Positions 32,359 to 63,690 of a stretch of 64,000 nucleotides of DNA are shown here, one piece after another. The notes beneath the pieces were generated by a model. The model was not told the origin of the DNA. It saw only the letters and a program-made list of their open reading frames with translations, and made no database searches. Source of the stretch: Jacaranda mimosifolia (taxonomy: Eukaryota; Streptophyta; Magnoliopsida; Lamiales; Bignoniaceae); assembly GCA_018894105.1 (NCBI GenBank), contig CM032128.1, positions 22,177,001 through 22,241,000 on the forward strand. The letters are read 5' to 3'. The first letter of the stretch is position 1. Each line of letters starts with the position of its first letter. The translations under genes were made by a program, and so were the position numbers.

Positions 32359-33119
32359 TAAAGCTTGCAATTTGAAAATGGTATACATAAGGTGAAACCA
32401 TTTCCATAAATTAAGACCACATTCCACATGCTTGGACCCAAAGTGAAGACATTCTGGACTTAACGCTCTAGTAGCGCCAATGATAACATTGTCTATTAGC
32501 CAACATAAGCCTTTGTGGGCGTCCAACACTAGTTTAGGACTGACTCAATATGCCATAACTCAATGTAACTAGTATCTCAATGAGGCTTTTGCATAGCTAC
32601 CACACTACTAAATAAGTCATCCATGAAAGTATAATGTGACTTTCTATATTCACAACCATATTGAAATAACTGATTATGTATAGAAGTTTTCTAGGTACAA
32701 TCGTGCCCTAATGTGTGACTGTCTGGAAGAGGTCCAAAAGCAACATAGTAGAGGATTCCCACCCAAAGATAGGGGTAAATGGAAAGGAGCATTGAACCAA
32801 ATTCAAGAATTGAATGAGGGGATGAAGGGCATTTTCAGTTATATAGATCCTAATGAACACTTTTTGTAGTCTAAGCATGTTGTATGATTTTACGGACATA
32901 GAGAGTCTATATATGTGAAGGCACTTTTCACTAGGCCTGTCAATAGGTAGGGTATTATCCTACACAAGCCCATTCCCAGATATATCCAAATATTGGATCT
33001 TATACTTGCCCTATCCTATTTAATTAACATTAGGACGTGAATCATCTTTATCGACTTCTTTTACTATAAGTCATAAAGAATTTCTATATATTCGGCTCAA
33101 TTAGAAGTAGAAAGATTCT

Positions 33120-34377
33120 ATGAAAATAGAATTATCACACATACAAAAATAAAGGAACCTAACTTAGATTAAGTATGATGACCTCAATCTTGAATGAGTC
33201 CTCTTAAACTAAATACTTCAAATCAATTCATAACCCTATTTCTATCACACAATTTGGCAAGTTGGAGGGCGATGATAATGCAACCAACCTTAAAATCAAA
33301 GAGTTGCCTCTCACTAGAATCCTGTACACCTTATACACATCATATGCAAACTTGACCCCATTTTTCAATGCACAAAAGAAATCATCAAGACATTCTAACA
33401 TAACACATTCATCAGTGTTCCAACAATTATACACATATGGAGTAAATGTAATTGTATTATAGTACTCATAATAAATTGTGCGCCCCATGATCCCCAATGA
33501 CATTAAAAATCATTGGACATTACCTTTTTTGTTGAAAAATCAAGTGTAACATAACCTTTAGGTCAAACATCCTATAGTTATATTGTTAAACTCATAGCGA
33601 ACTTTATTAATGTACTACCCATCTCCCCTTAGTTTTCAATCCTAAAAAGCATAAACTGATAAATTGCAAACCTAGATTTGTGCACATCATACAAAGAGGA
33701 AGTATTGCTATTTTTCTGAAACTCTTTTGCTTTCTCTATCCACTCCTATGTATAATTCCTATCTTCTCTAGGATATTTCTCAATCTTATGATGTAAAAAA
33801 TTTGACCTACTCAAGTGCAATCTTTGTATCATCTAAGTTTGACTTTTGAATTATTTTGACATGATATTACAAGCATGATGTATCTTCGACCCTCAAGGAA
33901 GTGCTACTATCTTTTTGAAACTCTTCTGCTTCCTCTCTCTGCTTATGTGCACATTTTCCATTTTCTCTAGACTTTCCTATTTTGAACTTAACCAACTTAA
34001 GTGCAATCTCTATACCATCTAAGTTGAAAATTTGATCAATTTGACATGATATGACAAGTATGATATATCATCGTCCCTCTATTTTGAAGAGTTTTTCCTC
34101 TTAATTGCTAAATAATTGGAAAAGGCGACTTTTACATCAACTCCGCCACCATTCACAGTCCTCTTCATTGCCAAATTTCGACATTCCAATTTCTAGTGCA
34201 TGACATACTTATTATGCTTGTCCTATCTACCATGCTTTGTATATGCTATAATATCACGTGAAAAATTATCTTTATAACCTCTAGAAATACTAATGTTGGT
34301 TGCAATTGACTTCCTAATAAAGCTCTCGCTAGATGGAACATAATCAATTAAGACCTGCACTTGGCCATGCAATCAAA
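33120..34377 (-). pseudogene. SUVH2/9-like pseudogene, array unit 1
   Basis: Minus-strand remnants in order are as follows. A HGQVQ-type start of SRA lies near 34370. The SRA middle is near 34100-34300. A reading YDVHKSRFAIYQFMLFRIEN followed by GEMGSTLIKFAMSL lies near 33580-33700, matching SUVH2/9 FDVGKSGFGV.. and the stretch after it. Pre-SET is at 33246-33490 (YNCWNTDEC..CLDDFFCALKNGVKFAYDV). In pre-SET one family cysteine is replaced (CLDDFF instead of CLDDCF). The frame is broken by stops and indels. SUVH2/9 proteins have SRA, pre-SET and SET domains and in Arabidopsis bind methylated DNA. No function is expected here. Confidence 0.78.
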
Positions 34378-34916
34378 AAATAAGAAATGTGCTTCATTAT
34401 ATTCAAGGAAAGAGTTTGTTTAGTTATAACTTAACTTGTATATTTTCCTAAGATTTTAGCTTATATTAGCAAATAAATGTCCACGTGCATTACAAGTGCA
34501 TTTTTTTAGTGACTACAATGTTCTCCCTTCTCAAACTTTCAATCAACAAGATGTCCCTTCATTTTTTTGTTTCACTTTATTTCCTTTAATTCATTGAAAT
34601 GCTTTAGTAATACTAATTAATATCATTCAAACATGTGGCTAGTGCATAGTAAAACATTAATTTCAGAAAGCTCAACCATTAGACATAGTATTATATACTA
34701 GTTTCCATCTTTATTAAGAGATTATCAAGAGAAATAAGAAAAAAAACACAAGGAAGGAGCACCTGGTGCTGGATTTCTCAATATGCAACTTTGGGATGCG
34801 AATTCATCTTGTCAGCCTTTTCTTTTCTTTTTTACTTTTCATAATTCTTCTTTCCTTTTTTTTTGAATTATGTTTTCTATCTAAAAATTTTCCTCCTTTA
34901 TAATCTAAGAATATAT

Positions 34917-36999
34917 TGAAGTGTGTGGTGAAGCAAAGATCTAATCGCACAATGGAATTTAAAACTTCCTCCATGAAAACAACTTATAACATCACATACT
35001 TAGGATCTTATTTTATGCCTTAAAGACAGATTTGGGAGAAAAATCAATTATCTTGATTGATTATTCAAAAATCAGAGTGTAAAAGCTTCAAGTGACTCCT
35101 CAATTGAAGATCTACCGTTTCTCTTTCCTTGGATCTTTCTTCCTCACTCCTCGGCCTCAAAGTACAGCACATTAGGCCTCCAAATCACATCCAAACTATG
35201 CTCAAAGGGCAGCAACAAAATCAGCCAAATGAAGCCTCCAAAAACCGCCAATTGCAATGAAGAACTCTTCTTCATTGGATCTTCATTGTTCACCAACAAT
35301 AATACCCCAAGTTTGGTATCTCTAAAGGTATCCACAAGCCTTACAAGCACTCTAATCTTCACTGTTAGTCTAGAAAAATAATGAAGTGGAAGAAGGAACT
35401 TAAGAGGGAAAATAAAGTTTGGAAGAGAATCCTAGAATGGAGTTATTTGTTCACAATAAAATTGAGATAGAGAGATCTAATCCTATCTCTTCAAGTGGCC
35501 GGCCATAGGGGGAATAAGGGGGCTTTTTGTACGGTGTTTCTCACTTGCATACTAACTTGGATGCCAAGAAAATTGCCACTTGATTTTAAATGGACTCTTC
35601 CATTTAAACCTTCCCTCCAAAACTAGATTCTCCAATCAATTAAATTGATCCCTTAATTTAATTAAACTAATTTAACCCTTTAAGTTAGTAAGACAATTAA
35701 ATTGTCACATGACTCCAATTAAATTAATTTTTTAATTTAACTGGTCTAATTTAACTCAAATTATTTGTTAAATTAACACTTTAAATCAATCAAGCCATCA
35801 TGACTAACTTTTAATTAGCCAACTTGGCCTCTTCCAAACTTGACCAATCTTATTATCCAACTCTTTAGATAATTTCTCTACTTCCATTTAGAGTGGTTAA
35901 GGCTTTTGTGTGTGACCCTTTAGGTTCACCAATTAATTAGACATGGGCTCACAACTCTTTGTGATTTGTTGAATATCAAATATTTCGATTAGTCTAAACG
36001 CTTTTAAACTAATCACTCTTTCAATTAATCTCTATTAATTGAAGAGTACCCAATCTCCATAGTCTATATCTAGCAGAAGCCTATGGAGCTCAACTGATTG
36101 GATGAATTAATTATAGTGAACCTTTTTGGCTTACAATTGCAATGCAAATATGGTCATTCCATTTTTTATCTCTTGAAAGAGGTCTAGGGCAAGATATTTG
36201 TTGATTCCCCAATAGCCTCGATAACTATGCATCTATTTTTGATGTGTGGTTATACTTTATGACCTCAACTTTGGAAAACTTCTTATTTTCAAATTGTCAT
36301 ATCACCTTACGCAAGGATTTCTTGGAACTGATCATCCTAGAATACATAGAAAATCAACTCATTCTTCAAAACGAGCAAAATGGATCCCATCTTGGAACTC
36401 ACCAACTTCCATACTTAGGTAATTTGTGCCCGACCTAAGCCCCAAACAACTTGCTAAGTGGTCAGGACAAAATCAAAGCACAAGGACCTAAATACAAAGT
36501 TTTGTGGAACCTCAAGTCAAAGGACTAGTTATGTGCACTATCGTAAGCTAGAGTGTTTCTCACTACCGATAAGCCACTCAAGCTATTTTGTGGTTTCTCT
36601 AAGCTAATTTTCAGTGAACCTGTTGTCTACAAGCACCTAGTAACATACATCTATGCCTTACACAGATTGCCCATGAAATGGGGCAATATCCAACCCCTTG
36701 GAGTATGCATCGTTAGTGCAAGTCTATTTGAATCTTAGATGCTTTATCTCTTAAGGTTCTGTGACTTGGAATATTCAAAATCATGACCATAGAGACTTAT
36801 TTTATGATCACCATCATATGCGTGACCAAGTCCCGTAGTTTTTGTATGATTTAAAGGCTTCAACCAAGTGTATGTGAAGAATATCATAAATTGCATAAGA
36901 TGAAGATGGCCATTTCATAGAATATCATTCAATCAAGATTGTCATACAAGGAGTAGTTTTATATGCTAATCTAATTGGTTGCAGGGCACTATTCCAACA
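34917..36999 (-). mobile_element. Solo long LTR, member 1 (inside array unit 1)
   Basis: Read on the minus strand it starts TGTTGGAATAGTGCCCTGCA at 36999 and ends ..CACACACTTCA at 34917, so it has TG..CA termini (2083 bp). The array unit is split between ..CTAAGAATAT and TATTAGCTCC.., and the flanks suggest an imperfect 5-bp duplication (tatat/tatta). It is related to the LTRs at 47581-50462 and 54331-56550. No internal region is present, as expected of a solo LTR left by LTR-LTR recombination. The superfamily is not determined. Confidence 0.72.
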
Positions 37000-37354
37000 T
37001 ATTAGCTCCAACATAAACTTGAATTTTGCTCCTTAGCATAGCAACCCCGAAAAGGATTAGTATTACGATGGCCATGACACTGTGATCTAATTAATGGAAG
37101 TCATATGTTGTGCTTTTGGGCTGTGACCTTGCAATCTTATGATGCTAGTGCCTAAGACTTTATAGTGATTCTAATTGATAATTCTTTTATGTGCAACAAC
37201 ACTTAATATTCTACTTTAGCATTTCTTCTACTTTTGTACTCCTTCTTGTTCCATACCTCCATTGCTAATCATTAACGCCTTGGTTATTTCTCTCAAAATG
37301 CTAACCAAGACCAAAGTACAAAATACCAAGATAGAATGACTAAAAACCATTTTG

Positions 37355-38612
37355 TTAGAGTAATAAAAACACCAAAGATAAAGCATTTACTTTAAGTCTT
37401 AAAGAATAACTATGTATTAGGCTTGATCGGAAGTAGAACAATTCTACAAAAATAGAGTTATCACATACTAACAAATGAAGGAACCAACTTAGATCAAGTC
37501 CAACAACTTGAATCCCCCTGTGAGTCATCCTCAACCTAAATATTTTAGATGAATACCTTACCTCATTTTTTTGTGCATACAGTTTCGGCAAGTTGAAGGG
37601 CAATGATAATGTATCCAACACTAAAAAATTCAAAGGTTTGCCTCTCAATAGAATCCTGTGCATGTTATATGCAAACTTGATCCTATTTTTTATTATACAT
37701 AAGCAATCATCCAGACAACCTCTAACACAATCACATTCACTAGTGTTCTGACACTTATACATAGTGAAAATATCAATATAACCTTTAGCTTATGGCACTT
37801 GTAATGAATTGTGCAGTTCATGATGCCCATGAATATCAGCATAGATAAACATCGGAATGCTTTTTGCTAGAAAAATCAAGTGTAACATAACCTTTAGCTT
37901 TAATATCCCATTGTCACATCTTTAAACTAGTAGCAAGCTTCATTATTGTACTCCCCATCTCCATCTCCTTTTTTTTAATAATTTTTAATTGAAAAACCCA
38001 AACCTTAATTTTATTACATTAAACAAAGAGAAAGTGCTACTGGCTTACTAAAACTCTTCCGCTTTCTCTCTATACTTCTATGCATAATTTCCATATTCTG
38101 CAACACTTTTCCTTACTTGAAATAGAAACTTTATCTACACAAGTGCAACTCTATACCATCTAAGTTTGAAGCTTCAATCATTTTGAATCTTCCACCTTGA
38201 GAAAGTGTTGCTATCTTGCTGAAATTCTTCCAACTAAAGTGAAATCTCTGCACCATCTAAGTTCAAAATTTAATGATTTTGAGATGATATGATAAGCATG
38301 CTCTATCATTGGCCCTTTACTCCTAAGAGCTTTTACTCTTAATTTCTATTAAATTGGGAAAATGATAACTCTACCACAGTTGACAATTCATAATCCTATC
38401 CTATGCCGAATTTCTATATTCCAATTTCTAGTACACGACATGCTTGTTATGCTTGTGCACCATGCCTTGTGTATATTATCAAGACACATGCATCCTCGTT
38501 ATCTTTGTAACCTTTGAAAAGATTAATGCTGATTGCAATTGGGTCCTTAATAGAACTCTAGCTAGATGCAACATAATTAAATAAGGCCTGCACCTACCCA
38601 TTCAATCAAATA
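37355..38612 (-). pseudogene. SUVH2/9-like pseudogene, array unit 2 (best pre-SET)
   Basis: This copy has the longest readable pre-SET stretch (minus 37355-37762). It reads YKCQNTSECDCVRGCLDDCL, then FAYNMHRILLRGKPLNF, then VFR-type RLRMTHRGIQVVGLDLSWF. The last part corresponds to the LEVFRSRETGWGVRSLDLIQAG-like pre-SET/SET boundary of SUVH2/9. The cysteine pattern CDCVRGCLDDCLC is preserved. The SRA part (about 37975-38600) is degraded, with several stops. The unit contains the ~175-200 bp sub-repeat twice (near 38030 and 38205). The end of SET and an intact start are absent. It is certainly not a working gene. Confidence 0.82.
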
Positions 38613-39834
38613 ACAAGAAAATATGTTCATTACATTCAAGGAAAGAATTTGTTTTATTGTAATTTAACTTACAATGTTCAAATGATTTTAGTTTATGTTT
38701 GTACTTTAAAAAAATTTATCACTAATAGTAGTCTGCGAATAGGTGCGTATGTGCAGTGCACACAAATTTTTGGTGTCTACAATATGCTTCCTTCAACAAT
38801 TCTCAATCAATATAATGTCTTTTCATATATTTTTTTCTCATTTTATTTCCTTTCAATTCATTAAAATAATTTATTAATAGTTTATTTGTAAATACTAGAA
38901 CTAATATGCCAACTATGCCCAACTAAGCAACCTTCTAATAGTGCTAACCTTATAGTGATGGTGCTCAAACTATTATTAGCCCTCTTAAAGTCAAATTACG
39001 ATTTTAAAATTATTCAAACATATGGCCAATGCATAATAAAGAGTTAATATTAGAAAACTCAACCAATAGACACAACATTATATGCAAAATTCAAGAAATC
39101 AATACCATAAATAAATAATCCATTATATCATGTTTTAGAGAATGGAGAAAGGCCTAACATAGTTAGAAAGAAAAATTGCAACTAGCTTCCATCTTTATTA
39201 AGAGATGATCAAGAAAAATACGGGCGGAGATCACCTAATGCTCGATTTCTTAATCTACAACTTCACGATGCAAATTCATCTCCTCAACTTATTTATCTCG
39301 CATTCACACTCTTGAATGTTTCTTTTTCTTAATTTTCTGAATTATTTCCTTACTTCAAGAATTTTCCCTCCTTCATAGATGATCTAAATATTTATTTTTT
39401 TAGTCCAAGAGTTGCTTTGGCTTAAACTTGAATTTTGCTCCTCAGTATGGTAATCCCGAGAAGATTAGTATGGCAATGGACATATTGCCTTCCTCTAACT
39501 AGTGGAAGAAGTCATGTGCTGTGCATTGGGTTGTGGCTTTGCAATTCCCTTGCTCTAGTGCCTAACACTTTATTTTGATTGCAAGCACTATTTTTTCTGC
39601 ATCATAACACTGAATATTTGCTATTTTTTGCTCTTTCTCATTTCAAACCTCCAATGCTCATTATTGATATCTTAGTTATTACCTAAAAATGCTAAACAAA
39701 ACTAGAGCACAAAATAACTAAAGTGTTATCTTAAGACATTCATAAAAAACATTGAAAATAACAAGCTTTTACTTTATGTCTTAAAGAATAGCTATATATT
39801 AGGCTCAATTAGAAGTAGAACAATTATATCAAAA

Positions 39835-41380
39835 TAGAGTTATTATATATTCAAAAACGAAGGAACCTTAGATCAATCCCAACAACATCAATCCCTAATA
39901 AGTCTCCTCAACCCAAATACTCCAAATCGATTCCACCCCATGTGAGTTAGATGATTTTGACAAGTTGGAGGGCAACGATAATGAGGCCGACAATGAAAAA
40001 TCAATAGTTTGTTTCTTACCAAAATCCTATTCACATCATATGCAAACTTGACCTTATTTTTCAATGCATAAAAGCAATCATCAAGACATTACTGCACATA
40101 TTCACATTTACTAGTGTTCCAGCAATTCTACACATATTTGGCAAAAGCAATTGTAACATGATACTTAAAATAAATAGGTGTTTCATGATCCCTATCAATA
40201 TCAATATAGAAAAACATTAGAAAGCTCTGCTTGCTAGAAAAAATCTAGTGTAACATAACCTTTAGTTTGAACATTGCATGCTTATATCGTTAAACTTGTA
40301 AAAAACTTCATTATTATACTGTCCATCTCATCCAAATTTTCAATCCTAAAAATCTTAAACTAAAAAAACCCCAAACCTAGATTTCATTACATAAAACTAA
40401 GAGGAAGTGCTAATAGCTTGATGATATGATTTATAACACTTCATTTTGGTTTTATTACACTTATGAGAAAGAAGTGCTAATAGCTGATGCCATCATGGCT
40501 GTGTCAACACTTCATTTTGGTTTTATTACACTTATGGGAAACATCATAATTAGCTCTAATAGACAACCTACATTTTTGTACAATGCACATACAACTTTGT
40601 ATAGCTTTGGTTAGTGGGTTGGCATTTGATTTGTCGCCAGCCACAATTTTTGTTATTGTGCATATCTTGTCAAATTAGTCACAATCTTAGAGATACGAGT
40701 GATTTGGCCTTTGCTTGAGATGTAAGGGAAGGTTGTTCTTCCCACTTAATTTTTCTAATAGCTTGATGAGACTCTTCTACGTCTGTGTATAATTTCCATC
40801 TTCTTTGGGACTTCTTCAGTACGAAGTTAAAAGCTCAACCTATTCAAGTGCAATGTTTGTACTATCTAAATCTTAAACTTGAATAATTTTGGCATGATGT
40901 TGCAGGCATGCTATATTTTTGACCCTCAAGGAAGTGCTATTATCTTGCTAAAACTCTTCCGCGTCCTCTCTGTACTATGTGTATAATTTCTATCTTCACT
41001 AGGCTTTCCTTTTCTGAAGTATAATTTGATTAGCTCAAGCACAATCTCTAACCCATCTTAGATGGAAATTAGATGTTCTATATCTTTGACCATTTATTTG
41101 CAAGACTTTTGTTCTTAATTGCTAAATTAGTTGGAAAATGGATAACCCTTGAACTCCATAATTTATTGTCCTCTCCAGTGCCAAATTTCCACATTCTAAT
41201 GTTTATTGAACAAAGATTATTATGCTTGCCTTGTTCATCATATCCTTTATATATTATCTTGTCCCCTACATCATCATTGTAACCTCTAGAAACATTAATG
41301 TTACTTGCAATTAGCTTTTAATAGAGCTTTAGGAAGATGGAACATTTTCAATAAGGCCTGTGCTTGGCTATGCAATCCAA
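39835..41380 (-). pseudogene. SUVH2/9-like pseudogene, array unit 3
   Basis: The landmark order is the same as in the other units, with SRA and pre-SET remnants on the minus strand. It has an extra ~330 bp (about 40420-40740) that includes a direct duplication of a phrase around ACACTTCATTTTGGTTTTAT. That duplication splits the SRA between the two ~190 bp sub-repeats. Stops are frequent. It is assigned by alignment to its better-preserved neighbours. Confidence 0.68.
40425..40545. repeat. Local direct duplication inside array unit 3
   Basis: AACACTTCATTTTGGTTTTA followed by TTACACTTATG occurs twice, about 70 bp apart. It is absent from the other seven units, so it arose after the array formed. 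Confidence 0.8.
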
Positions 41381-41937
41381 ACAAAAAAAAAAGTGCTTCG
41401 TTATATTTTAGGAAAGAGTTTATTTTATTATTATTTAAATTATAAAATTCTCATAAGATTTAAGTTTATATTTTTAGTTTGAAAAATTTATCACTAATAT
41501 TGATTTGTAAATAACTGCGCATATGCATTACACGTGCATTTTTTAGTGACTATAGTGCTCTCCCTTATATAATTATCAATCAATAAAATGTTACTTTTTT
41601 GTTTCACTTTATTTACTTTAACTCATTAAAATAATTCGATATATAATAATTCATTTTTAATTACTAAAGCTAATCTACCAAATCTGCCCGATTGAGCAGC
41701 CTTCTGATAATGTTACACCCTCAATCACACACCTCTTGGTGGTGGTGTTCAAGGACCTTGAGTAATTTTTTATTCAAACAATTATCACCCTCTCAAAGTC
41801 AAACTATGATAACAACACCTTCCAAACATGAGGCCTACATGTGGGAAAGCATTAATCTCAAGAAACTTAATAAAATTCTATATGAAATTCAAGAAAAAAC
41901 ATCATATTAAAATATCCATTACATTATTTTCTACAGA

Positions 41938-44620
41938 TTGGTTGTAAGAGCCTAGGAATATAGTTATACATCTATTTCTCTTAATAACCTAATATTTATC
42001 CTAAATTCATGGTTACTTTTATTTTTATCTTGTCATGATACCATTCACAAAAAGATACTTGATTTTAGAATTTTTGAGTGAATCTGCCATCTTTATACAA
42101 AAGATTCTTGAATGTAAACTATTTGAGGAGCTAAGGGAGAATACTAAAATTTGTTTAGGACCTTGAAATAATTAATCGAGATTCTGCCCTTTTATTTTAT
42201 TTTGACACATATAATTGTTAATACCGTGATTTTCATCATGAATCGGATTTACCGTCCGTCATGGACATGGAAAGAGTACTGATTTTTAAAAAGAGCGTAT
42301 TTTTGGCCTACCTTAATTGATCACTTGACTACCAAAAAAGCCATTGCTGCTTCAAGGGCTGGAAGAGCGGAGTAAGCTCTCACGACGGCCTTGCTTTCGT
42401 TCGGTTCCTTGTTGACTAAGCTACTGAAAGCATATTAGATTGTACTTTATTTGAAGGAGTCAAATGCAAATACCAAAAAGTAAATTACTTAAATTGGATA
42501 GCTGGCAACTTGAGGTAAAGCCACATGTTTTGACCAAACCTAATAAACCTTACCCTTTAAAAGGTTTTTCTCACTTTCACTATTAGCAAAATTTGGATAT
42601 TTTAGGAGGAAAAAAAAATAAAAGGGAGAGAAATAGAGAAGAGAAAATAAAAGAAAACTTATAACTAGGTAGGCTAGAATAGGAGAAAAAGGGAATTTAG
42701 CTCTTGCTCCCAAAAGGTCGCATTCCTTACCATTTAAAGTTGTTTATTTTGAAACATATGTGTATGTTATAACATATATGTTAAGGTTATGATTTAAATT
42801 ATGCATGGTTTTGTGTGCTTAATTTGGTAAAGACCAATTAAAGTTGGACATAAATTTAAGTTAGTTTGGCAATTCATTGGAAGGACTTATGAAGTTTAAA
42901 CTTGCATAGGTCTTATTTTTCAGAAATTTATGGCTATCAATGTGTAAGTAGGTCCAAAAAAGTAGAGGAATTTAATTCAAGCCTAGATGGTTAAGAATTA
43001 AATTAAGAAAAATCACATTTCTGTAGTTAAATTTTGACTTTGGGAGTAGTATCAAGTTAGAAGTGTTATGGATGTATATGTTAATCCTAAAATCACCACA
43101 TCAGGGAGGTTAGTGTAATTTGTGAATTAGTAAATGATAAGTAGAAAGTAGCTATAGAGGAAAAATTGAAAATGTACTTGACTAGAATACTTTAGCTGGT
43201 TGGAAATGAGAATTGGAGTTATATTTGTAAATTGGAACAAAAAATATCCTATTATTGAGTATATTTCATGTTTATAGAAATATAAATTATATGGAAAAAA
43301 TAGAGAAATATAATAAAATAGATTCAAGAAATTAAAGCGTAGAATGGGAGGAAAATAAAAGAATTAACAGAGGACATAAATAAAGTTGAAGAAATGCTAT
43401 TTGGCTAAAGTTTGGATATATATATATATATAATATTTTAGGGTTAACTATATCTTGTCCTCAGTATATAAATTTCACTAATTAAGGTACATTAATTAAA
43501 CTCTACATTAAATTTTAGTATTTATGTTGAACAAGCAACTTGCATAATGGTTTTTCTTACCTCAAAACACCGCACTTGGGGAAGCAAGGTGAGTGCTGTA
43601 ACCTAAAGGACATAAGATGATTATTTCCATCAAGATGAGTATGATATGGTCATTATAGAAGTGAGAAAAGAGAATAAGGAAGAAAAACATTTATATCGTT
43701 ATACTATGCAGGTCATTAAATCACTTCGCATGCAACATGGTACATCACATATAATTGAAAGATGCATCGACATGAATATGCTAGTCTCATCCCATAGAGG
43801 TGTAGTATTTTATCTCACTGTGAAGGCTTATTTTGATATTATGGCATCAGTATGGACATATTTCTCATGGAGGTGTAGTACTTTTATCTCACCTTGAATG
43901 CTTGACTTTGTTATCACGTTTAAATTGTATGGTGTATGGCACAAACTACTCGGGCGGCATAGGGCTTTTCAAGTAGGATTTGTGCCTCGTGGCCTATTTC
44001 CCATAAACGCATGACTAGAGCTGCCATGGTGAGAAGGGCTCGTAGGATTGGCATGATTTAGAGCATGTCTACTGATGAGAAGGTCCACCTTGTCTAAAGC
44101 AATTAGGTTGATCGTGGCCGATGAGATAAGAGTGATGGCATCAACAATCTTTAACTATATCCTATCACAGTAAATGATTTATTAGTTATTGTACTTGACA
44201 TTGCATGCATAGTATAATCTAATAAGTCAATTAATATTCAAGTTGAAGAACACACAAACACAAATATGAGCCTTACTAAGTTGTATTTGCAACTTATGTC
44301 TTTTATCTATTTCAATCTCTTTAGGAACGAAGGGCAAGGACATTGGCACAATGTAGGAACTAAATATGTAAATATTAGAAGTAGATCTTATGCTGGCTCT
44401 GAATATACAGAAGATGGTAGTCCACCCCATGTTTATATTTTGTATGGACCGACTATGTTATCTTGCCAATGTTCAAATAGGAGTGGTTAGAAAGTGTTCA
44501 TATTTCAAGATAAACATCAAGCTTTGGTTTTAAATTGTACTGGTATGTGGTTGTGGGAAATAAAAAAATTAATTTGGTTAAAGCTAAAGATACATCAGGC
44601 TTATACATTGGGATCATGAT
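41938..44620. mobile_element. Unclassified ~2.7 kb insertion in array unit 3
   Basis: Homology to other units stops after TTTTCTACAGA (about 41938) and resumes at GGGAAAATGCATAAAG (about 44621). The inserted DNA contains no recognised domain. A purine-rich stretch is near 42610-42660, and an imperfect ~70 bp duplication (around ATAGAGGTGTAGTA / ATGGAGGTGTAGTA) lies near 43795-43880. Terminal repeats and target duplications were not resolved, although ATTG occurs at both edges. Confidence 0.6.
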
Positions 44621-44828
44621 ATTGGGAAAATGCATAAAGTATTCATAAAAAAAGCGCAACTAGTTTCCATATTTTTCAAGATAAAAAAACCCATTCGGGA
44701 GGAAGTGCACCCGATGTTGGATTTCTCAATCTACAGTTTTTGGACGAGAATCTATTTTGTCAACTTATTCTTCTCTCTTTCTCTCTGCAGAATTGTTCTT
44801 TTTCATCTTTTTTTGAATTATTTTCTCT

Positions 44829-44847
44829 CCCCCCCTCTCTCTCTCTC

Positions 44848-44878
<31 letters not shown>

Positions 44879-44880
44879 TC
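44829..44880. repeat. Low-complexity C/CT/TA tract
   Basis: A run of C, then (CT)n, then (TA)n. It corresponds to the CT-rich tract present in every array unit, here expanded. Another expanded version is at 47340-47362 (C15 then CT repeats). Confidence 0.9.
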
Positions 44881-45419
44881 CTCCTTTATAAATGGTTTGA
44901 AGAGTTCCTTTTATAGTCCAACAATAGCTCGACATAAACTTGAAGTTCGCTTAGTATGGTGTTAACCAAAAGGACTTCACTTAGCATGGTGTTCCCAAAA
45001 GGATCAGTATTACGACGACCACTACACTATGCTCTAATTAATGAAAGCCACATGTCATGTGCTAGTATTGTGGCTTTACAATCTTTTGGTGCTAGAGCAA
45101 AACACTTTATAGTAATAGTAAGTGTTGGTTTTTTCTATGCCATGACACTGAATTTTCTATTTTAGCACTTTTACTATGTTTTTACTCCACCTTATTCCAA
45201 ATCTTTAATGCTCTTAATTGATATCTTGATTATTTTCTAAAAATGCTAAACAAGATTGATGCACAAATTACCAAGATAAATCGATTAAAATTAATTATTT
45301 TTAGATAGAACGACTGAAAATCATTATTTTTAGATAGTTGAAAAAACATAGAAAACACGATAAGTAAAAGTCTTAAGGAATAACTATATATTAGGCATGA
45401 TTAGAAGTATACAATTCTA

Positions 45420-50462: not shown

Positions 50463-50844
50463 TTTTTTGACCTATAAATCTTCTATTACGCAACTCAACC
50501 CTTCTCCTCAAACTCTTTCACTTGTTGGATACATAAAATGACCTATTCTAGTGCCTAACACTTACTGATTGTAAGTGATGTTTTTTCTTGCACCACAAAA
50601 TAGAATGTTCTACTTTAACACTTTTTCTACCTTTTTTGCTCCTTCTTGTTCAACCTTGAATACTCATTATTTTCACCTTGGTTATTACATAGAAATGCTA
50701 ATCAAAGTTAAAAAGCAGACTACCAAGTTAGAACAACTAAAAACTATTATCTTTAGACAATCACAAAAACATTGAAAACACAAAGATTTTACTTTAAGTA
50801 TGAAAAATAGCTATATTAGGCTCAACCAAAAGTAGAAGAATTCT

Positions 50845-52932: not shown

Positions 52933-54330
52933 AATAAGAAAATATGCTACATTATATTCTAGGAAAGAGTTTGCTTTCTAGTAATTTAACTTATAAATTT
53001 TTGTAAGATTTTAGTTTATATTTGTACCTCAGTTTGCACATAATGTATGTGCATTTTCTTTAGTGACCACAATGTGCCCTTTTCTACAATTTTCAATGTA
53101 TAGAATGTCCTTTCACATTTTTTTTTTTGTTTCACATTATTTCCTTCAATCTATTAAACTGCTTCAGTAATAATTTATTAATAACAGCTAAAATTGATTT
53201 TCCATATATGCACAATTGATCAACCTTCCAATAGTGCTATACCATCAATCTCACACCTCTTAGTGGTGGTGTTCAAGGACATTGAGTAATTCTTAGTCTA
53301 AACTAATATTATCCCTCTCAAAGTCAAACTACGATCTCAACATAATTGAAACATAGGAAAGCATTAATCACCAAAAAACTCAATAAATAAACACAATATT
53401 ATTTGCAAACTTTTCAAGAAATAAACAAATTGTTAAAACATCTATTACATCGTCTTCTAGAGAATGGGGAAAGGCTTAACATACTTACCAAAAAAAAATA
53501 AAAAATGCAACTAGTTTCCATCTTTACTAAAAGATAATCACGAAAAATAAGAAAAACCCATAAGGAAAGGGAGCACCCAAGGCTAATTTCTCAATTTGAA
53601 ACTTCACTATGTGAATCAGTTTTGTTGACTTCTCTCTCTCTCTCTAACTAGAATTCTTCTTTATCTTTATTTTCTTAATTATTTTCTCTCTCTAGAAAGT
53701 TTCTTCCTTATCGATGATCTAAGATTTATAATCTATGAGTAGATCTAGCATAAACTTGAATTTCGCTCCTAAGCATGGCAACCCCCAAGGATCAATATTA
53801 TGATGGTGATTACCCCATGTTCAAATAATAGAAGTTACATGTTGTGCACTAGAGTTGTGGCTTTGCAATCTTCTGGCAGTAGTGCCTAACAATTTACACT
53901 AATTGCAAGCAATGGTTCTTCTACACCACACAATTGAATATTCTATTATTTTTTTGCTCCTTCTCATTTTAAATCTCTAGTGCTCGTCATTGTTGCCTTG
54001 GATATTACCAAAAAATGCTAAATAAAGCTAAAGCACAAATTACAAAGCTAGAATGACTAAAGTACATTATTTTTAGACAATCATAAAATACCAAAAAAAG
54101 CAAACTTTTACTTTAAGCTAAACAATGGCTATATATTAGGCTTCACTAGAAATATAACAATCCTATGAAAATACACCTATCACATATAATAAATTAAGGA
54201 AGCAACTTAGATGGAGTCCAATGGCCACTATCCTAAGTGAATCTCTGTCAACTTAAATACTTAAAATTGATTTTCAACCCTATTTTGTCCCACACAATTC
54301 CAATAAGTTGGAGGATAATGATGACAATGG

Positions 54331-56550
54331 TGTTGGAATAGTGCTCCGCAGCCAATGAGATTAGCATGTAAATTATTTCACTTGTAAGACAATCTCGATT
54401 GAATGATATTCATTATAAATGACCATTTTCATCTTATGCTTATATTACTCACTAGCATTTGGTCGAAGCCCTTAGATCACACAAGACTATGAGACTTGGT
54501 CATGCACTTAGTGGTGTTCATGGAATAAGTCTTACATGGTTGTGATCTTAAATATCCTAAGTCATAAAATCTTATGAGATAGGACATCTAAAATCCGAAT
54601 AGACTTGCACTAGTGATGCATAATCCAAGGGTTGGATGATGCTTCGTTCCATGAGAAAGCTATGTATGACATAGATGCATGTTAGTGCATGTTTGTTAGA
54701 GAACAAAGCACTGGTGGCCCACCCAGAGAATTCACTAGGTAGTCATTGTGGTATGTCGATAGTGGCAAGTTCTCTAGCTTATGCTAGTGTATATAATTAA
54801 CCCTTTGACATGAGGATCCATTGTAGCCTTGTGTTTAGATCCTCACACTTTGACTTTTCCTTGGCCACTTAGTGGGCCGTTCGGGTTGAGATTGGTTATG
54901 AGCTACATAGACATGGAGGTTTATGAGATCCAAGATGGGATCCGATTCCTCGTCTTTGTGAAGGGCGAGTGCATCTCCTATGTGTTTTATAATGATTGAT
55001 TCCAAGGAGTCCTTGCGCAAGACTGTATGACAATTTGAAAAAAGAGTTTTTCAAAGATGAAGTCATAAACCAGAATAAAAAATTGAGGATAGAAACATAG
55101 TATCGAGGCTATTAAGGAGTTGACAAATATCTTTCCATAGGTCTCTTTCATGGAGATAGGAGATGGAATGATTGTATTTGCGTGGTACGCATAGAGCTAT
55201 AATAGTTCACCAAAAGCATTTATTCGACCAATTCTTGGACTTCATGGGCTTGAAATTGGACGTCGACCATGGAGATTGGTTACTCTTCAATTAATAGAGA
55301 TTAATTGAATTGAGTTAATTAGCTTAAAGGAGTTTAAACTAATATGAATATTTGATATTCTAAAGTCACAAAAGTTGTGAGCCCATGTCCAATGAATGGT
55401 AGATCCTAATGGGTCACACACAAAAGCCAATTGAAATCCTACTAGATGAAGGGAATTTTCTAAGTGTTAGAGAAATTCCAAGTTGATTGAAAATGAGAGG
55501 AAATTGGTTGATGCAATTTTTAGTCATTTTGGCTTGATCAATTTAATTGTTAAATTGATCTAAATAGAGTTAAATTAGACCAATTAAACTAAAGGTTAAT
55601 TTAATTGGTGCCACATGACTCTCAATTGGACAAGTTAACTTAAAGAGTTAAGTTAATTATTACTAGCTTAAAGAGTTAAGTTAGTTGACTTAAAGGTCAA
55701 GTCAAAGTTTAATTAAATTAAATTGTTTAATTTAATTAAAGCGAAGAGTTTATTTTGGAGGAAAAATTCAAATGAAGAGTTCATTGGGTGTGGCATTAGA
55801 ATTTATTTGGATGACATTTCATTAGACTAAATGAAGATTCCAAATTAAATTCAAATGTACACAAAATGCACATGCCACTTGCATGCAAGTTGGTGCCACC
55901 TTGGCATCACACCATTCTCCCTCTATATATAGATATAAAAGAGGGCGGCCAACACACATGAAAAGCAAGCATTTAGATCTAATTGTTAGATTCCTCATTT
56001 TCCCTCCAATTTTTGTGATTCTCTCATGTGTTGAGGCTTCACATTTTTCTTCACCTCAGCCTCTCTTGATTTTTGGCCTTCATCATCCTCATTTCTTATT
56101 TGATCTTCCAAATGATCTAGGAGAAATTGGATTGTCCATTGGTGTGTGGATCATATCATTAGAGGCAATACATTTGGATTGATAAGCTTTTGGAGATCCT
56201 CTGCTTGGGTAGTAACTTTGAAGCATCATTGGAGGTCTTTCCGAGTTTTTTGAGCTAAAGTTTTTACTGGAGATACTTCAAGGCATTGGTATTCTTGTGG
56301 TTCAAGTTTCACTCAATTCCGAGGTGATTTGGCTGGGCAAAGGTTGCTCATACTCTACTGCGCCAGGAGGAGACTTTGTTGGAGAGATCTAGCTTGTCTT
56401 CTTCATTTCAGTTGGAATTTGCTTTTGAGGTAATTTTATGACCTTAATCTAGTTTAACAACATGAACTAGATCCTTTTGGAGGTGCAAATCAATTTAGAT
56501 TTTAGTTTTTAAGTGCTATTAATTGGATCTTTGGCTTACATCGTCTTTCA
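54331..56550 (+). mobile_element. Long LTR, member 3 (2220 bp), plus strand
   Basis: It starts TGTTGGAATAGTGCTCCGCA and ends TACATCGTCTTTCA, immediately before a primer-binding site, so it is the 5' LTR of an element. It aligns with members 1 and 2 (opposite strand). A TATA-like CTCTATATATAGATATAAAA lies at about 55919-55940, followed by GAGGGCGGCCAACAC, giving a plausible promoter within the LTR. No matching 3' LTR is present in the window. Confidence 0.78.
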
Positions 56551-56552
56551 AG

Positions 56553-56564
56553 TGGTATTGGAGC
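56553..56564 (+). other. Primer-binding site (initiator-Met tRNA type)
   Basis: TGGTATTGGAGC matches the plant initiator-methionine primer-binding site TGGTATCAGAGC at 10 of 12 positions. It lies 2 bases after the LTR end, the usual arrangement. Confidence 0.75.
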
Positions 56565-58535
56565 TTAAATTCATGCTTCTAAGTTGGATTTTCATTGATT
56601 GATTCATGTGATGGATTGATTTAGATCTCCAAATACTTGATCCAATTTATGGATTGGAGTGTTTGGATGATGATGCTTGTGGCTCCTTTGTTGATGAATA
56701 TATGTTATGCTAATATATGTTTTATTTGTTAATTCATATGTTAGTGTAACTTGATTCATGATTAGCTAATGTTAAATTTTGATTTAGCATTGGATGATGT
56801 TATATGTTGATATAGCATGTTAAATTTGTCCTTAATGTGTTTTGGTCATTTTTGGATCAAGTTGGATTGGATTTAATTGGAGATTGTGGAAGAATGTGAT
56901 TCTCACTTAAAACTTGATTTTTGAAAAATGTTTGAGCACTTGAAATTTCATTTTAAAAGGTGTTTTAGATCTGAAATTTCATCTATATTATGTGATTTAA
57001 TGTTTAGGAGGTGTCCTAAATTTTTTGGTGCACAAAAGTCGAGCAAAATAACACATGACTCGGTCCACAATTGAAAACAGGGGGCTATTGTGCTACTGTC
57101 GGACGCCCAGCGTGGGTAGCAGTGCCTAGTTTGAGTATTGGATGAGTTTGGTTGTGTTTTTTTTGCTCCTTTAGTGACCAAAAGTGTTTTTATTTCACAC
57201 ATAATAGATTCACAAGTGTTGTGCAAGTTCTCAAAATTATGTTTGACATTTTTGAATGTTTTTTAAATCTTGTTAAAGTTGATCTCCAATTATGTGAAAA
57301 AATGAGATGCCTAAAAGTTATGCTTATTTTTGCTTGACCAATTAATTGTTTATGAGATAAGCATTTAATTGTTGGAATTGAATGTCAATTCTTGATTTAT
57401 TGTTCATTTAATTGTTGAATGGATGATGAATGAATGGGGATGGATGATCATGAGCTTTTAATATTAATTTTATTTATTTCAAGTTGTTGAAAATGATTGT
57501 ATTAAATTAGGGCTTACATGCCTCTTAATTTCTATCTTGTAAATGTTATGAAAGTAGAATCACTAGGAGTGAGGATTTCTTTTCATTTAAATGTTACAAG
57601 GAGCAAAGAAGACCATTGGAGCATGAAGACACATGAATATAGGGATATACTTGTGTAATAGTTAGATTTAATCAACCTACTTAAAATCAACTAAGTGGTA
57701 CACCTATGGCTCTAAGTGCACCATTTGGTTAAGGCTCAGGGTTATCCCACCCTCGGAGCATGCTAGGCAGATTTACTTATTTATGCTTTCCATATCCTAT
57801 TGATGTATGTGATGCATGGATTAAGATATAGAAAACCTAAATAAGAAGATAAAATTCACGAGATCTTGGCAAGCAAGTTAAAACACTCCACTTAGAATGT
57901 CTAACCGCTTTCAAAATATTAAGTTAAGATGGATATAAATTAAAAGGAGTTCTAACTAATCCATGCCTTCTACCAATAGTATATGGCATGAAGACACTAC
58001 CATCTTTGTGTGATGGCACTCAGTCATGTAGGTCACACTTAGGTGGAAAGTTGTGGCCATATACTTAGCATACAATGCACCTTTGATTTGAGGCTTCCCA
58101 TGTATTGGCACTCGATCACGGGGGGTGTCATGGTGCAGTTCGAATCAAAGTTTGATTGGTAGGTTCGATTTAACACCTAGTAATGTAGAGGTTGTCCGAT
58201 CACAGGGATCTATATGAAGAGTGAGACAAAATATATCAAGAGTTGCATATGATGCAATTAGCAAATGTTGCTTACCTTTGGATTGTTTGCGGATGGCACT
58301 CGGTCATGGGGGTCCACTTACAAGTCCCTAGGGTCTTGGTTCTCATTAGGAAATATGATTTCTCGAGTTTTTCTAGGGGGTGAAGGATTTGATAAAATAG
58401 TAGGAGAAAGACATGCTTGAAAGACCATAAACATGTTTTCAAATATCAATATTCAATCACATGCTTGTATTCTTTTTTAGCTTTTTGTAGATTTTTGAAA
58501 TCTTCAAACTCGAAATGGCTAAGAACCCACTCATA
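56565..58535 (+). mobile_element. Non-coding leader/internal remnant of LTR element 3
   Basis: This internal sequence downstream of the primer-binding site has no gag or pol reading frame. It has a less AT-rich stretch near 57090-57130 (CGGACGCCCAGCGTGGGTAG). The phrase TGGCACTCGGTCATGGGGGT recurs with changes near 58012, 58108 and 58294. It ends where array unit 6 resumes (about 58535), with no second LTR. The element is therefore truncated, or was a non-coding (large-derivative) type. Confidence 0.6.
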
Positions 58536-60114
58536 ATATTTCCAAGAGCTTTTGTTGTTAATCATTGGATAAGTAGGAAAAGGAAAACTGTTATATGAAG
58601 TCTATAGTTTATGGTCCTTTCTAATGCCAAATTCCCACATTTTAGCGATTAGCGCACGATGAGATTATTATGCTTGTCTTGCTCACCATGCCTTGTACAG
58701 ACTCTCATGTTATGTCCATCCACGTTATCTTATGACCTTTAGAAACATTAATATTGGTTGTAATTGGCACCCGGCCAATAGAGCTCTAGCTAGATGGAGC
58801 ATAATTAATTAAGGCATGCTCTTGGCCATGCAACCAAAAGAAGAAAATGTGCTTTATTATATTCAAGGAAAAAGTTTGTTTCATTATAATTTAACTTATA
58901 AATTTTCGTAAGATTTTAGTTTATATTTTTGGTTTAAAAAACTTATCACTAATTGTGGTTTGAAAATAACTGTATATGTCATTGCACGTGCATTTTTTAG
59001 TTACAACTATGTGCTTCATTCTATAATTTTCAATCAACAAAATGTCCCTTTATATTTTTTTGTTTCACTATATTTCTTTCAATTCATTAAAATACTTCAA
59101 TAATGATTTATTTTTAAATATTGAAGCTATCTAGCAACTATGTCCAATTCAACAATCTTCTAATGGTGCTACACCCTGACACACCTCTTACTGGTGGTGT
59201 TTAATTCCAATTTAAACCATTATTATCCCTCTCAAAGTTAAGCTATGATTAAAATGTCATTCAAATATTTGGCTAATATGCAAGCATTACTCTAGAAAAA
59301 CTAAATCAATAGACAAAACTTTGTGTTCAAAATTCAGAAAATCAACACCACAGTTAAATAGTCTATTACATCATTTTCTAGAGAACAAGGAAAGGCTAAA
59401 AATAGTCATACCAAAAATATTGCAACTAGTTTCCATATCTAGTAAGAGATGATTAAGAGAAATAAGAAAAACCACAAGGAAGGAGAGCATCTGATGCCTA
59501 ATTTCTCAATATGCAACATCTGGATGTGAATTTGTCTTGTCGACTTTTTTCTCTCTCTTTCTTTCTCCAGAGTTCTTCTTTTTTCTTAATTTTCTAATAT
59601 ATTTTCTCACATGTAAAAATTTTCGTCCTCCATAAATGATCTAAAAAGCTCCTTTTATTGTTTAGGAATAGCTCCTACACAAACTTGAGTTTCACTCCAT
59701 AGACTAGCAGCCCTAGTAAGATCTTTCTTACGATGACTACAATGCTGTGCTCCAGTTAATGGAAGTCATATGCTATGTGCTGGTGCTGCGACTTTGCATT
59801 CTTATGGCACTTGAACCTGACATTTTTTAATGGTTTTAAGTGATGGTTTTTTTGCCGCAAGGTATTGAATAGTCTACTTCAACACTATGCAACTTTTTTA
59901 ATCTCTCTAGTTCCAAATATCCAATGCTCATCATTATTGTCTTGATTATTATCTAAAAATGATAAACAAAAAGTAAAGCATAAACTGCAAAGCTAGAGTA
60001 GAGTGACTAAAGAAATTGTTTTGATAATCACAAAAACACCAAAGCACCAAGCTTTTACTTTAAGTGTTAAAGAATAGCTATATTAAGCTCAACTTGAAAT
60101 AGAGCAATTCTATG

Positions 60115-61366
60115 AAAATAGAGTTATCACATACTCACAAAGGAAGGAACCAACTTAGATTAAGTCCAACGACCTTAATCCCTAGGGTCTCCCTCAATGT
60201 AAATACTTCAAATTGATTTTAACCCCATTTTGAGTCATACAATTTTGGTAAGTTGGAGGGCAACGACAATAAGGCCGATACCCAAAAATCAAAGGTTTTC
60301 CTCTCACTAGAATCACGTACATGTCATATACAAACTTGACCCATTTTCAATATAAAATAGCAATTGTCCAGACATCCCCCAACATAATCATATTCACTAG
60401 CGTTCTAACAATCATACATGTATAAAATGAAAATAGTTGCGATATGGTATTTATAATAAAATTGTGTTATTCATGATCCATTTTAGTATTAGTGTAGAAA
60501 ACACTAGAAAATTCTTCTTGCTAGAAAAATCAAGTATAACATAGCCTTTAGGTCAAACATCCCATGGCAACATTGTAAAACTCATAGAGAACTTCATTGT
60601 TATACAGTCCAACTCTTCCTGATTTTCAGTCCTAAAAAGTTTAAACTAAAAAAAATCCTAAACCTTGATTTCCCTTTATCAAACCAAGGGGAAGTGCTAC
60701 TAGCCTGTTGAAACTCTTTCGTTTCTTTTCTCCACTTCTGTGCATAATTTCCATCTTCTGTAGGATGTTTCCCAATCTAATATAAAAAACTGACCTACTC
60801 AAGTGCAATGTTTGTGCCATCTAGCTGTAATTTGAATGATTTCAATATGATAGTCAAGTATATTATATCTTCAACCCTCAAGGAAATGGTCTATCTTGTT
60901 GAAACTCTTCCACATCCTTTCTCCACTCATGTTCATAATTTCCATCTTCTATAAATTTTTCCAATTTGAAGTAAAAACTTGACCAACTCAAGTGTAATCT
61001 TTATATCATATAAGTTGGAAATTTGATGATTTTGACATGATATGGTTACCATGCTATGTATTCGACATTCTATTTCCTAGAGCTTTTGTTCTTAATTTCT
61101 AAATAAGTTGCAAAAAGGGCAACCCTTACCAAACTCTATAATTCATGGTCCTCTCTAATGCTAAATCTCCGCATTCCAATTTTTAGTGCACGACATGCTT
61201 ATTATGCTTGTCCTATTTACCATTCCCTCTATATACTAACATGCCAGTTGCATCCTTGCCATCTTTATAATCTCAAGAAACATTTATTCTTGTTACAATT
61301 AGCTTTGGTTAAAGCTCTGGCTAGACGAAACATAATCAATTAAGGCCTGTGCTTATCCATCGATGG
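60115..61366 (-). pseudogene. SUVH2/9-like pseudogene, array unit 7
   Basis: An uninterrupted unit. Minus-strand remnants are the start of SRA (HGQ region near 61360), the SRA core near 61190-61260, sub-repeats near 60880 and 60680, WFDKGKSRFRIFF near 60640-60685, and pre-SET near 60240-60420. Stops and single-base indels are spread throughout. It keeps the standard domain order of SUVH2/9 up to the beginning of SET. Confidence 0.74.
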
Positions 61367-62569
61367 AAAAATAAGAAAATGTGCTTCATTATATTCTAAG
61401 AAAGAGTTTCCTTTATTATAATTTAACTTATAAGTTCTCAAAAGTTTTTATCACTAATAGTAGCTTGCAAAAATCTATGCACATGCATTGCACATATATT
61501 TTTTTAGTAGCTACAATGTGCTCTTATCTGTAGTCAATCAATCAACATAATTCCTCTTCAATGTTTTGTTCACTTTATTCTCTCTAATTCAATAAGATAC
61601 TTCAATAATAATTTATTTATAAATACTACAACTAATTTTAATAATATGCCCAATTCAGCAGTCTTCTGATAGGGTTACACCCTCAATCTCATACCACTTA
61701 ATGGTAGTGTTCAAGGATGTTGAATAATTATTGGCATCTAGGAAAGCATTAATCTTAGAGAACTCAATCAAAAGATATAAAATTATAGGCAAATTTGATG
61801 AAATCAATACTATAGTTAAAACATCTATAACATCATCTTCTAGAGAACACATAAAGCCTAACATAGTCATACAAACAAAAATGCAACTACTTTCCATTCT
61901 TATTAAGTGATGATCAAGAGGAATAAGAAAGACCCATGAGGAAGGAAAGCACCCGATGTCGAATATCTCAATATGCAACTTTGGGATGTGAAACCACCTT
62001 GTCAGCTTCTTTCTATCTCTTTTGCTTTGCACATTCTTCTTTTTCTTGATTTTTTAAATTATTTTCTCTCTTTGGAAATTCTCATTTTTCTAAATAATTT
62101 GAAAGGGGCTTTCTATTGTCCTAGAGTACCTCTAGCATAAAATTGAATTTTGCTCCTCAGCATGGCGACCCCAAAAGGATTATTATAACGGCTACTACAT
62201 CATCATGCTCGAATTAATGAACGTGACATGTTGTGCCTTAGTGTTGTGGATTTTCAATCTTCTGGTGCTGGTGCCAAACTCTCTATAATGATTATAAGCA
62301 ATAGTTTTTATTGCGTTGTGACAGTGAATGTTTTGCTTCAACACTTTTCCCACATTTTGGCTTCTTGTTCTAAACCTTCTATGCTCATCATTTTTTTCTC
62401 AGTTTATTACCTAAAAATACTAAACAAAACTACAACACAAATTACAAAGCTAGAACGACTAGAAACTATTTTTTCCTGACCATCACAAGAATAATGAAAA
62501 CACTAGGCTTTTACATTAAATTATTATAGAATGGCTATATATTATGCCTTTGTAAATATTATAATTATA

Positions 62570-63690
62570 TAAAAATATAATTATCATCTACTCACAAATG
62601 AATGATCCCACTTGAATCAAGTCCAATAACCTCAATCCACAATGAGTCTCTCTCGACCTAAGTACTTCAAATTGATTCCTGATCCCATTTTGACTCCAAA
62701 AAATGGGAGGGTAACAACAATGGGGCTAGCACTTAGGAACCAACAGTTTTCCCCTCATAAGAATCTTATGAACCTTGTATGAAAATTTCACCCTATTTTT
62801 CATTACGTATAAGCAATCATCTATATATTCCCTATCACAATCACATCATTGGTGTTCCAACAAGTATAGAATATGAAGTAAAAATAGTTGTAATATAGCG
62901 TTCATAATAAAAATTCCATTCAGTTCAAGATCTCCATCAACATTATTGTCCAAAAACACTAGAAAGTTCTCATTTTTGCTAGAAAAATCCAGTGTAACGT
63001 AACCTTTAGGCTGAACATCACATATATTTCTAAATGGGCAACAAACTTCATTGTTGTGTTGGCCATCGTCCCCTGGTTATCAATCCTAAAAAGCTTAAAC
63101 TTAATAACCCCAAACCCTGATTTCCCTACATCAAACCAAGAGGAAGTGCTAAAACTCTTATGCTCCATCTCTCCATCATGTGGGCAATTTTTGTCTTTTT
63201 TAATGATTTTCCATTCTAAAGTAAAAAATTTACCAGCTCAAGTGCAACCTCTGCACCATCTAAGTTGGAAACTTTGATGAGTTTGACATGATATTACAAA
63301 CATGCTATATCTTTGGCCCTTAAGGAACTGCTACTAGTTTATTTGAAACTCTTCTACTTTCTCTTTCCACTCTATTCTAAAGTGAAAACATGACCAACTC
63401 AAGTACAATGTTGGTACCACCTAAGTTGAAGATGTGAATGATTTTACCACGATATGATAAGCATACTATATCTTCAATCCTTGAGGAAGTGCAACTAACC
63501 TACTGAAACTCTTCTGCTTCTTTCTCCACTCTTGTTTACAATTCCTATTTTCTCAAGGACTTCTCTATTTTCGAAAAAAGAATTGAAAGAATCACCTATG
63601 CTCTTGATGACTTTGACAAGATAAGATAAGTATGTTATTTTTCAAATAGTGAGGAGACATTACTAGCTTCCTGAAAATTTTTCATTTTGT
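62570..63690 (-). pseudogene. SUVH2/9-like pseudogene, array unit 8 (truncated, best SRA end)
   Basis: On the minus strand at 62959-63168 it reads SSWFDVGKSGFGVIKFKLFR, then NQGTMANTTMKFVAHLEI. This is nearly colinear with SUVH2/9 WFDVGKSGFGVFKFKLVRIEGQ and the stretch after it, and is the clearest SRA C-terminal piece in the array. Upstream on the minus strand, instead of the SRA core, there are about four copies of the ~175 bp sub-repeat (near 63135, 63315, 63480 and 63655). Unrelated DNA then begins at about 63690. Pre-SET remnants lie near 62700-62860. Confidence 0.8.
63130..63690. repeat. Expanded ~175-bp sub-repeat (about 4 copies)
   Basis: Each copy contains a GAGGAAGTGCTA..CTGAAACTCTTCTGCTTTCT phrase followed by a CTCAAGTGCAATC..CCATCTAAGTTG phrase. 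Spacing is about 165-180 bp. Other array units carry two copies. Confidence 0.75.

What the first reader, a model, noticed from the sequence alone, without database searches (positions are those of the whole stretch)
33055..63690. Macrosatellite-like array of eight SUVH2/9-type pseudogenes
A ~2.4 kb unit is repeated head to tail about eight times over 30 kb. Read on the minus strand, different copies preserve different pieces of one SUVH2/9-type protein. These are GDVIVY..HGEQDKH (SRA core, unit 4), WFDVGKSGFGVIKFKLF (SRA end, unit 8), ENQGDMGSTIMKFAM (after SRA, unit 5), and CDCVRGCLDDCLC with FAYNMHRILLRGKPL (pre-SET, unit 2). Together they give the correct domain order. Tandem amplification of a DNA-methylation reader gene into a satellite-like array is unusual.
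Basis: partly seen in the sequence, partly recalled or inferred. Interest (0 to 1): 0.87.

Follow-up and report, generated by a model that had tools for sequence, protein, structure and literature searches.

The report
Decayed tandem array of gene fragments
A plant chromosome carries about eight old, broken, head-to-tail copies of a piece of a DNA-methylation reader gene; the piece was already incomplete when it was multiplied, so this is decaying repeat DNA rather than a working gene cluster.

Summary
A 2.5 kb unit lies head to tail eight times over about 33,047-63,685, and its minus strand carries decayed pieces of a SUVH2/SUVH9-type protein: closest solved chain SUVH9, E 2.2e-27. The interpretation needs revision: what was multiplied was a truncated fragment, not a reader gene. 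No copy has the N-terminus or SET. In the five copies where both sides can be read, 25-35 SRA residues are replaced by 366-436 bp of other DNA (753 bp in one). A stop at one Gln codon is in 6 of 6 readable copies. About half the unit gave no Pfam match (10 of 12 frames). The tree is star-like, neighbours are no closer than distant copies, the three codon positions diverge alike, and C-to-T change rises CHH<CHG<CG, as for methylated non-functional DNA. Later insertions split the array. Host: probably Lamiales. One old burst of a dead gene fragment followed by neutral decay fits best. Copy number elsewhere in the genome could not be tested: the search did not complete.

The parts
33047..63685 (-). 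whole array, eight units head to tail, coding sense on minus strand; right edge runs into other sequence at about 63,690
33058..34080 (-). unit A (partial)
34158..38210 (-). unit B, interrupted about 34,904-37,002
38222..41080 (-). unit C, interrupted about 40,425-40,740
41095..46360 (-). unit D, interrupted about 41,938-44,680
46362..52887 (-). unit E, interrupted about 47,556-50,500 and 51,020-52,109
52888..58536 (-). unit F, its upper part not detected; 54,331-58,536 is inserted or unrelated sequence
58537..61070 (-). unit G, uninterrupted reference unit
61071..63685 (-). unit H
33148..34372 (-). SUVH2/9 fragment copy c1 (P0001 residues 93-174 and 202-383)
37465..38614 (-). copy c2 (90-166 and 202-386); holds CDCVRGCLDDCLC and FAYNMHRILLRGKPL
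39847..41384 (-). copy c3 (90-171 and 202-386)
45400..46646 (-). copy c4 (93-174 and 200-402, the part after 386 weak); holds GDVIVY and HGEQDKH
50866..52497 (-). copy c5 (about 208-386, weak tail to 391; N-side piece not detectable), split by an inverted-repeat element; holds ENQGDMGSTIMKFAM
54192..58860 (-). copy c6 (77-174 and a weak 336-383), split by the 54.3-58.5 kb insertion
60131..61364 (-). copy c7 (93-174 and 201-386)
62591..63141 (-). copy c8 (200-385), fewest stops (1); holds WFDVGKSGFGVIKFKLF
60690..61066 (.). internal duplication, two copies of about 190 bp, lying where the missing SRA residues should be; off-diagonal matches show counterparts in units A, B, C (weaker), D, E and H, while F lacks the region
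35636..36999 (+). LTR-like element, copy 1 of 3
49016..50462 (+). same element family, copy 2 of 3
54331..55809 (-). same element family, copy 3 of 3
48400..48900 (.). hAT-type non-autonomous element, 28 nt terminal inverted repeats, exact 8 bp flanking repeat
51020..52109 (.). element with long terminal inverted repeats (MULE-like), imperfect 9 bp flanking repeat

Best explanation
A piece of a SUVH2/SUVH9-type gene (from the middle of SRA through pre-SET to the first residues of SET, about 0.9 kb) became stranded next to about 1.3 kb of DNA without SUVH similarity. It was already broken: no N-terminus, no SET, 25-35 SRA residues replaced by other DNA with a 190 bp internal duplication, and at least one stop. 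This 2.5 kb unit was then multiplied head to tail in a short burst, by unequal crossing-over or by rolling-circle copying of an excised circle; the data do not separate these. Since then the copies have decayed neutrally, with a mutation pattern like that of methylated cytosines, without homogenisation, and were split by several insertions. The array encodes no intact SUVH protein and most likely has no function. Shown: array anatomy, SUVH2/9 origin, shared truncation, equal divergence at codon positions, insertions. Inferred: the single burst, its mechanism, methylation, lack of function.
For: Anatomy. Origin: SUVH9 is the best PDB hit at 2.2e-27, next SUVH6 at 8.5e-16; the unfilled unit consensus is 71% identical to plant protein P0001 and 52% to Arabidopsis SUVH9, each over 255 residues. 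Truncation: the copies align within P0001 residues 77-386 apart from weak tails in c4 (to 402) and c5 (to 391) (for tblastn the rows of three proteins were looked at); the first 891 bases of the consensus score at best 30 against the whole of P0001, and spacer scores for N-terminal and SET residues are 25-33 with maxima of 33-38 in 15 shuffles each. Shared stops: Q153 is TAA or TAG in 6 of 6 readable copies, position 239 a stop in 5 of 6, Q378 in 4 of 6. Neutrality: divergence 0.320, 0.312, 0.300 at codon positions 1-3 with overlapping 95% intervals; spacer 0.286. Burst: internal branches at most 0.019, terminal 0.18-0.27; distance unrelated to order, Spearman 0.06, p 0.75, 28 pairs. C-to-T change: 14 of 35 in CG, 19 of 70 in CHG, 436 of 2776 in CHH.
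Against: Several consensus stops sit at Gln or Arg codons where repeated C-to-T change could mimic an ancestral stop: at five other Gln sites (96, 98, 108, 143, 222) 10 of 31 readings are stops (hand count; with sites 149, 305, 323 and 352 it is 10 of 57), so only Q153 is clearly shared. Copy c8 has CAA at Q378 and one stop only, so the ancestor may have been less broken than the consensus suggests. Most frameshifts look private; a few positions recur (338 in c1, c5, c7; 234-239 in c1, c2, c3, c7; SUVH9 numbering). CpG depletion is not special to the array: observed/expected 0.35 against 0.38 in the auxilin-like exon. The CG and CHG counts are small. The parental gene and the rest of the genome were not available.
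Confidence: 0.8

Rival explanations
1. A working SUVH2/9 gene was tandemly duplicated and each copy died later on its own.
For: Most frameshifts look private to single copies; many stops are at Gln or Arg codons reachable by C-to-T in parallel, and c8 keeps Gln at 378.
Against: No copy shows the N-terminus or SET; five of five copies readable on both sides share the SRA replacement; one stop is in 6 of 6 readable copies; no codon-position bias.
Confidence: 0.1
2. The unit is the body of a gene-capturing transposon (Helitron or Pack-type) and the tandem arrangement comes from its copying mechanism.
For: Gene fragment joined to unrelated DNA; head-to-tail order with a star-like tree; edges at different unit positions, so a non-integer copy number. 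Papers on Helitrons capturing gene fragments appear in the listing (abstract starts only).
Against: No transposon protein in 10 of 12 consensus spacer frames; the real unit ends cannot be located inside an array; solitary copies could not be looked for.
Confidence: 0.15
3. The array is maintained because it makes small RNAs that adjust the parental SUVH2/9 gene.
For: Homology to a gene of the RNA-directed methylation pathway; methylation-like decay.
Against: Single copies are only 44-57% identical in protein to P0001 and share few long exact words with one another (7 shared 24-mers over 23 pairs), so matching a separate gene is unlikely today; codon positions diverge alike.
Confidence: 0.02

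Closest known systems
SUVH2/SUVH9 (SRA proteins needed for DRM2-mediated DNA methylation; abstract start of PMC2582956 seen)
   Same: sequence and order of SRA, pre-SET and first SET residues
   Different: no N-terminus, no SET, SRA interrupted, stops and frameshifts in every copy
Multi-copy SUVH9-like proteins of Tanacetum coccineum (17 named entries among the 108 hits, whose query was a filled composite)
   Same: many SUVH9-like entries, several partial, in one species; three entries with one longest-contig length (80,656) and two with another (77,388), which suggests clusters
   Different: another plant order, some still annotated as genes; no shared event shown, loci not looked at
Macrosatellites (definition recalled)
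   Same: kilobase unit, head to tail, gene-derived
   Different: eight copies in view, 24-30% divergence over the unit alignment, no homogenisation

Membership tests
SUVH2/SUVH9 gene | SRA domain | tested here: inconclusive
   N-side piece readable in 6 of 8 copies; 25-35 residues replaced in the five copies readable on both sides; consensus piece hits PF02182 at 7.9e-7, 29.4 bits, under the cut-off of 30.7
SUVH2/SUVH9 gene | pre-SET domain | tested here: met
   Homology met: SUVH9 chain at 2.2e-27 over this stretch. Pfam cut-off not reached: PF05033 8.2e-6, 26.8 bits against 29.1. Both on the unit consensus
SUVH2/SUVH9 gene | SET domain | tested here: not met
   No copy aligns reliably beyond residue 386; spacers score no better than shuffles
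SUVH2/SUVH9 gene | open reading frame | tested here: not met
   1-9 stops and 1-9 frameshifts per copy against P0001 (both pieces summed); 1-15 and 1-11 against SUVH9, inserted codons counted
Macrosatellite | kilobase-size unit, head to tail | tested here: met
   2.5 kb unit
Macrosatellite | large, variable copy number | not testable with these tools
   own-genome search did not answer in 12 tries; eight in the window
Macrosatellite | homogenised copies | tested here: not met
   0.70-0.76 identity, neighbours not closer
Gene-capturing transposon | defined ends and dispersed copies | not testable with these tools
   no genome search possible; no Pfam match in 10 of 12 spacer frames

The most novel reading that the evidence does not exclude
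Soon after its birth the array produced small RNAs against its parental SUVH2/9 gene, so a gene fragment of the methylation machinery was silenced by the machinery it came from and adjusted that machinery's dose, before decay ended the loop.
Probability: 0.03. Interest if true: 0.7.

Novelty: new member of a known kind. Interest (0 to 1): 0.27.

Why it matters
It documents how a dead gene fragment can become a multi-kilobase tandem array without selection, and gives eight parallel, separately decaying copies of one sequence, useful for measuring methylation-driven mutation. It does not show a new role for SUVH proteins.

Tried and rejected
Pfam scans of ten open frames in inserts, spacer and flanks (one hit far under its cut-off, judged chance), of ten more (see Noticed in passing), and of ten spacer-consensus frames out of twelve (none). 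Rfam, gathering threshold: none. A real 144-residue array frame against the protein collection: 5 candidates, none at 0.001. Genome copy number: the genome search did not answer in 12 tries (3, 7, 16, 18, 21, 27, 32, 36, 42, 49, 54, 59). Literature: searches; I saw listings and abstract starts only, and not every hit was listed (15 of 55, 3 of 3, 15 of 33, 4 of 4, 0 of 0, 12 of 69, 12 of 13). No listed row named a SUVH tandem pseudogene array; the library is open-access only. SET or N-terminal remains in the consensus spacer: rejected. Neighbour homogenisation: rejected.

Full report
Observation. Self-BLAST of the window gives parallel same-strand alignments throughout 33,058-63,586; among the rows printed (70 bases or more) none links the array to sequence left of 33,058. 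Unit 58,537-61,070 used as reference places eight units A-H head to tail. Identities over the unit alignment are 0.70-0.76; after re-phasing to gene copies 0.62-0.74, the lowest being c6 with c8 (c6 there carried about 240 bases of insertion). Simple word counting shows no 2.4 kb peak, because the copies are too diverged. The left edge is near 33,047 (by eye) and the right edge near 63,685, beyond which the sequence changes; what follows begins with TG and a motif that I recall, without a test, from plant LTRs, so the array may continue outside the window.

Identity. A consensus pre-SET piece hits SUVH9 (4nj5) at 2.2e-27, SUVH6 at 8.5e-16, and more distant H3K9 methyltransferases. Pfam pre-SET and SRA models match at 8.2e-6 and 7.9e-7, both under their cut-offs; the third piece tried matched none. 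tblastn with SUVH9 finds the array and nothing outside it better than E 1.1. Of 108 plant and unnamed proteins the best summed score is that of P0001, then P0002 and P0003; one protein of the 108 also had a match outside the array, E 0.005, in the auxilin-like exon. The unfilled unit consensus is 71% identical to P0001, 72% to a Paulownia protein over 200 residues, and 52% to Arabidopsis SUVH9. In a tree it falls in a 10-leaf group with support 100 (two Sesamum, Paulownia, Coffea and unnamed proteins); placement inside that group is not resolved (support 37 for the group without Coffea; supports read after re-rooting). An auxilin-like exon of the window is closest to Paulownia and Sesamum (73%; 120 of 594 hits listed), so the host is probably in Lamiales.

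What each copy holds. Frameshift-tolerant alignment to P0001 shows two pieces: residues about 90-174 (readable in 6 of 8 copies: c1, c2, c3, c4, c6, c7) and about 200-386 (7 of 8; in c6 only a weak 336-383, score 60 against a shuffled maximum of 47). Where both are present, in five copies, 25-35 residues between them are missing; the pieces are 366-436 bp apart in c1, c2, c4 and c7 and 753 bp in c3, which holds a further insertion. The extra DNA holds a tandem duplication of about 190 bp, seen as off-diagonal matches in seven of eight units (weaker in C, absent in F). No copy shows the N-terminus or SET; the consensus spacers score like shuffles for both (28 and 29 before, 25 and 33 after, maxima 33-38 in 15 shuffles each). 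The spacers, about half of the unit, gave no Pfam match in 10 of 12 frames.

Dead before amplification. Stops per copy 1-9 and frameshifts 1-9 against P0001 (both pieces summed). Q153 is a stop in all 6 copies in which it can be read; position 239 in 5 of 6; Q378 in 4 of 6, with CAA in c8. Five other Gln codons are stops in 10 of 31 readings (hand count; 10 of 57 with four further sites where the copies often have another residue), so parallel C-to-T change is common and Q153 is the only clear shared stop; by hand 0.32 to the sixth power is about 0.001. The shared truncation and SRA replacement do not depend on this argument. Most frameshifts look private, with a few recurring positions.

One burst, then neutral decay. 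K2P distances are 0.33-0.55, mean 0.39. Internal branches are short, and only one pairing (c2, c4; support 90) is supported. Distance does not depend on order. Codon positions diverge alike (0.320, 0.312, 0.300), the spacer slightly less (0.286). C-to-T changes rank CG (14 of 35) over CHG (19 of 70) over CHH (436 of 2776); CpG depletion as such is no stronger than in the auxilin-like exon (0.35 and 0.38). With a recalled plant rate near 7e-9 per site per year the burst would be of the order of 25-30 million years old, less if methylated DNA mutates faster; this is inference only.

Later insertions. A hAT-type element at 48,400-48,900 has an exact 8 bp flanking repeat; an inverted-repeat element lies at 51,020-52,109 with an imperfect flanking repeat; three copies of a 1.4-1.5 kb family ending in CA lie in B, E and, reversed, in F. 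Calling that family LTR-like rests on its ends only; class names are recalled.

Known or new. Tandem pseudogene arrays and amplified gene fragments are a known kind of thing (recalled). No SUVH array appeared in the rows listed by searches, of which only listings and abstract starts were seen. Tanacetum coccineum has 17 named SUVH9-like entries, so multiplication of SUVH9-like sequences may have happened more than once in plants.

Noticed in passing
window 10752-18361, minus strand: Probable auxilin-like (J-domain) gene; exon 12853-14535 is 73% identical to Paulownia and Sesamum proteins; DnaJ match at 10752-11078 is under its cut-off (0.0018).
   Followed up: partly
window 2618-4266 and 8439-10064: Two copies (73% identical) of a stretch that in the second copy encodes a retrotransposon Pol beta-barrel piece (PF22936, 1.3e-7): retrotransposon relics.
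   Followed up: partly
window 23260-24180: Imperfect tandem array of about 158-173 bp in a stretch with strong G-over-C skew (0.42 over 22-24 kb).
   Followed up: no
window 26444-26533: Two perfect head-to-tail copies of a 44 bp unit, so probably recent.
   Followed up: no
protein search: A Paulownia SUVH9-like protein (P0017) and two Sesamum entries (P0047, P0066) lack SET in the precomputed Pfam list, while two other Sesamum entries (P0020, P0054) have it; SET-less SUVH9 forms may recur in Lamiales.
   Followed up: no
protein search: 17 Tanacetum coccineum and 4 T. cinerariifolium SUVH9-like entries, some with the same longest-contig length: perhaps a lineage-specific clustered expansion.
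   Followed up: no
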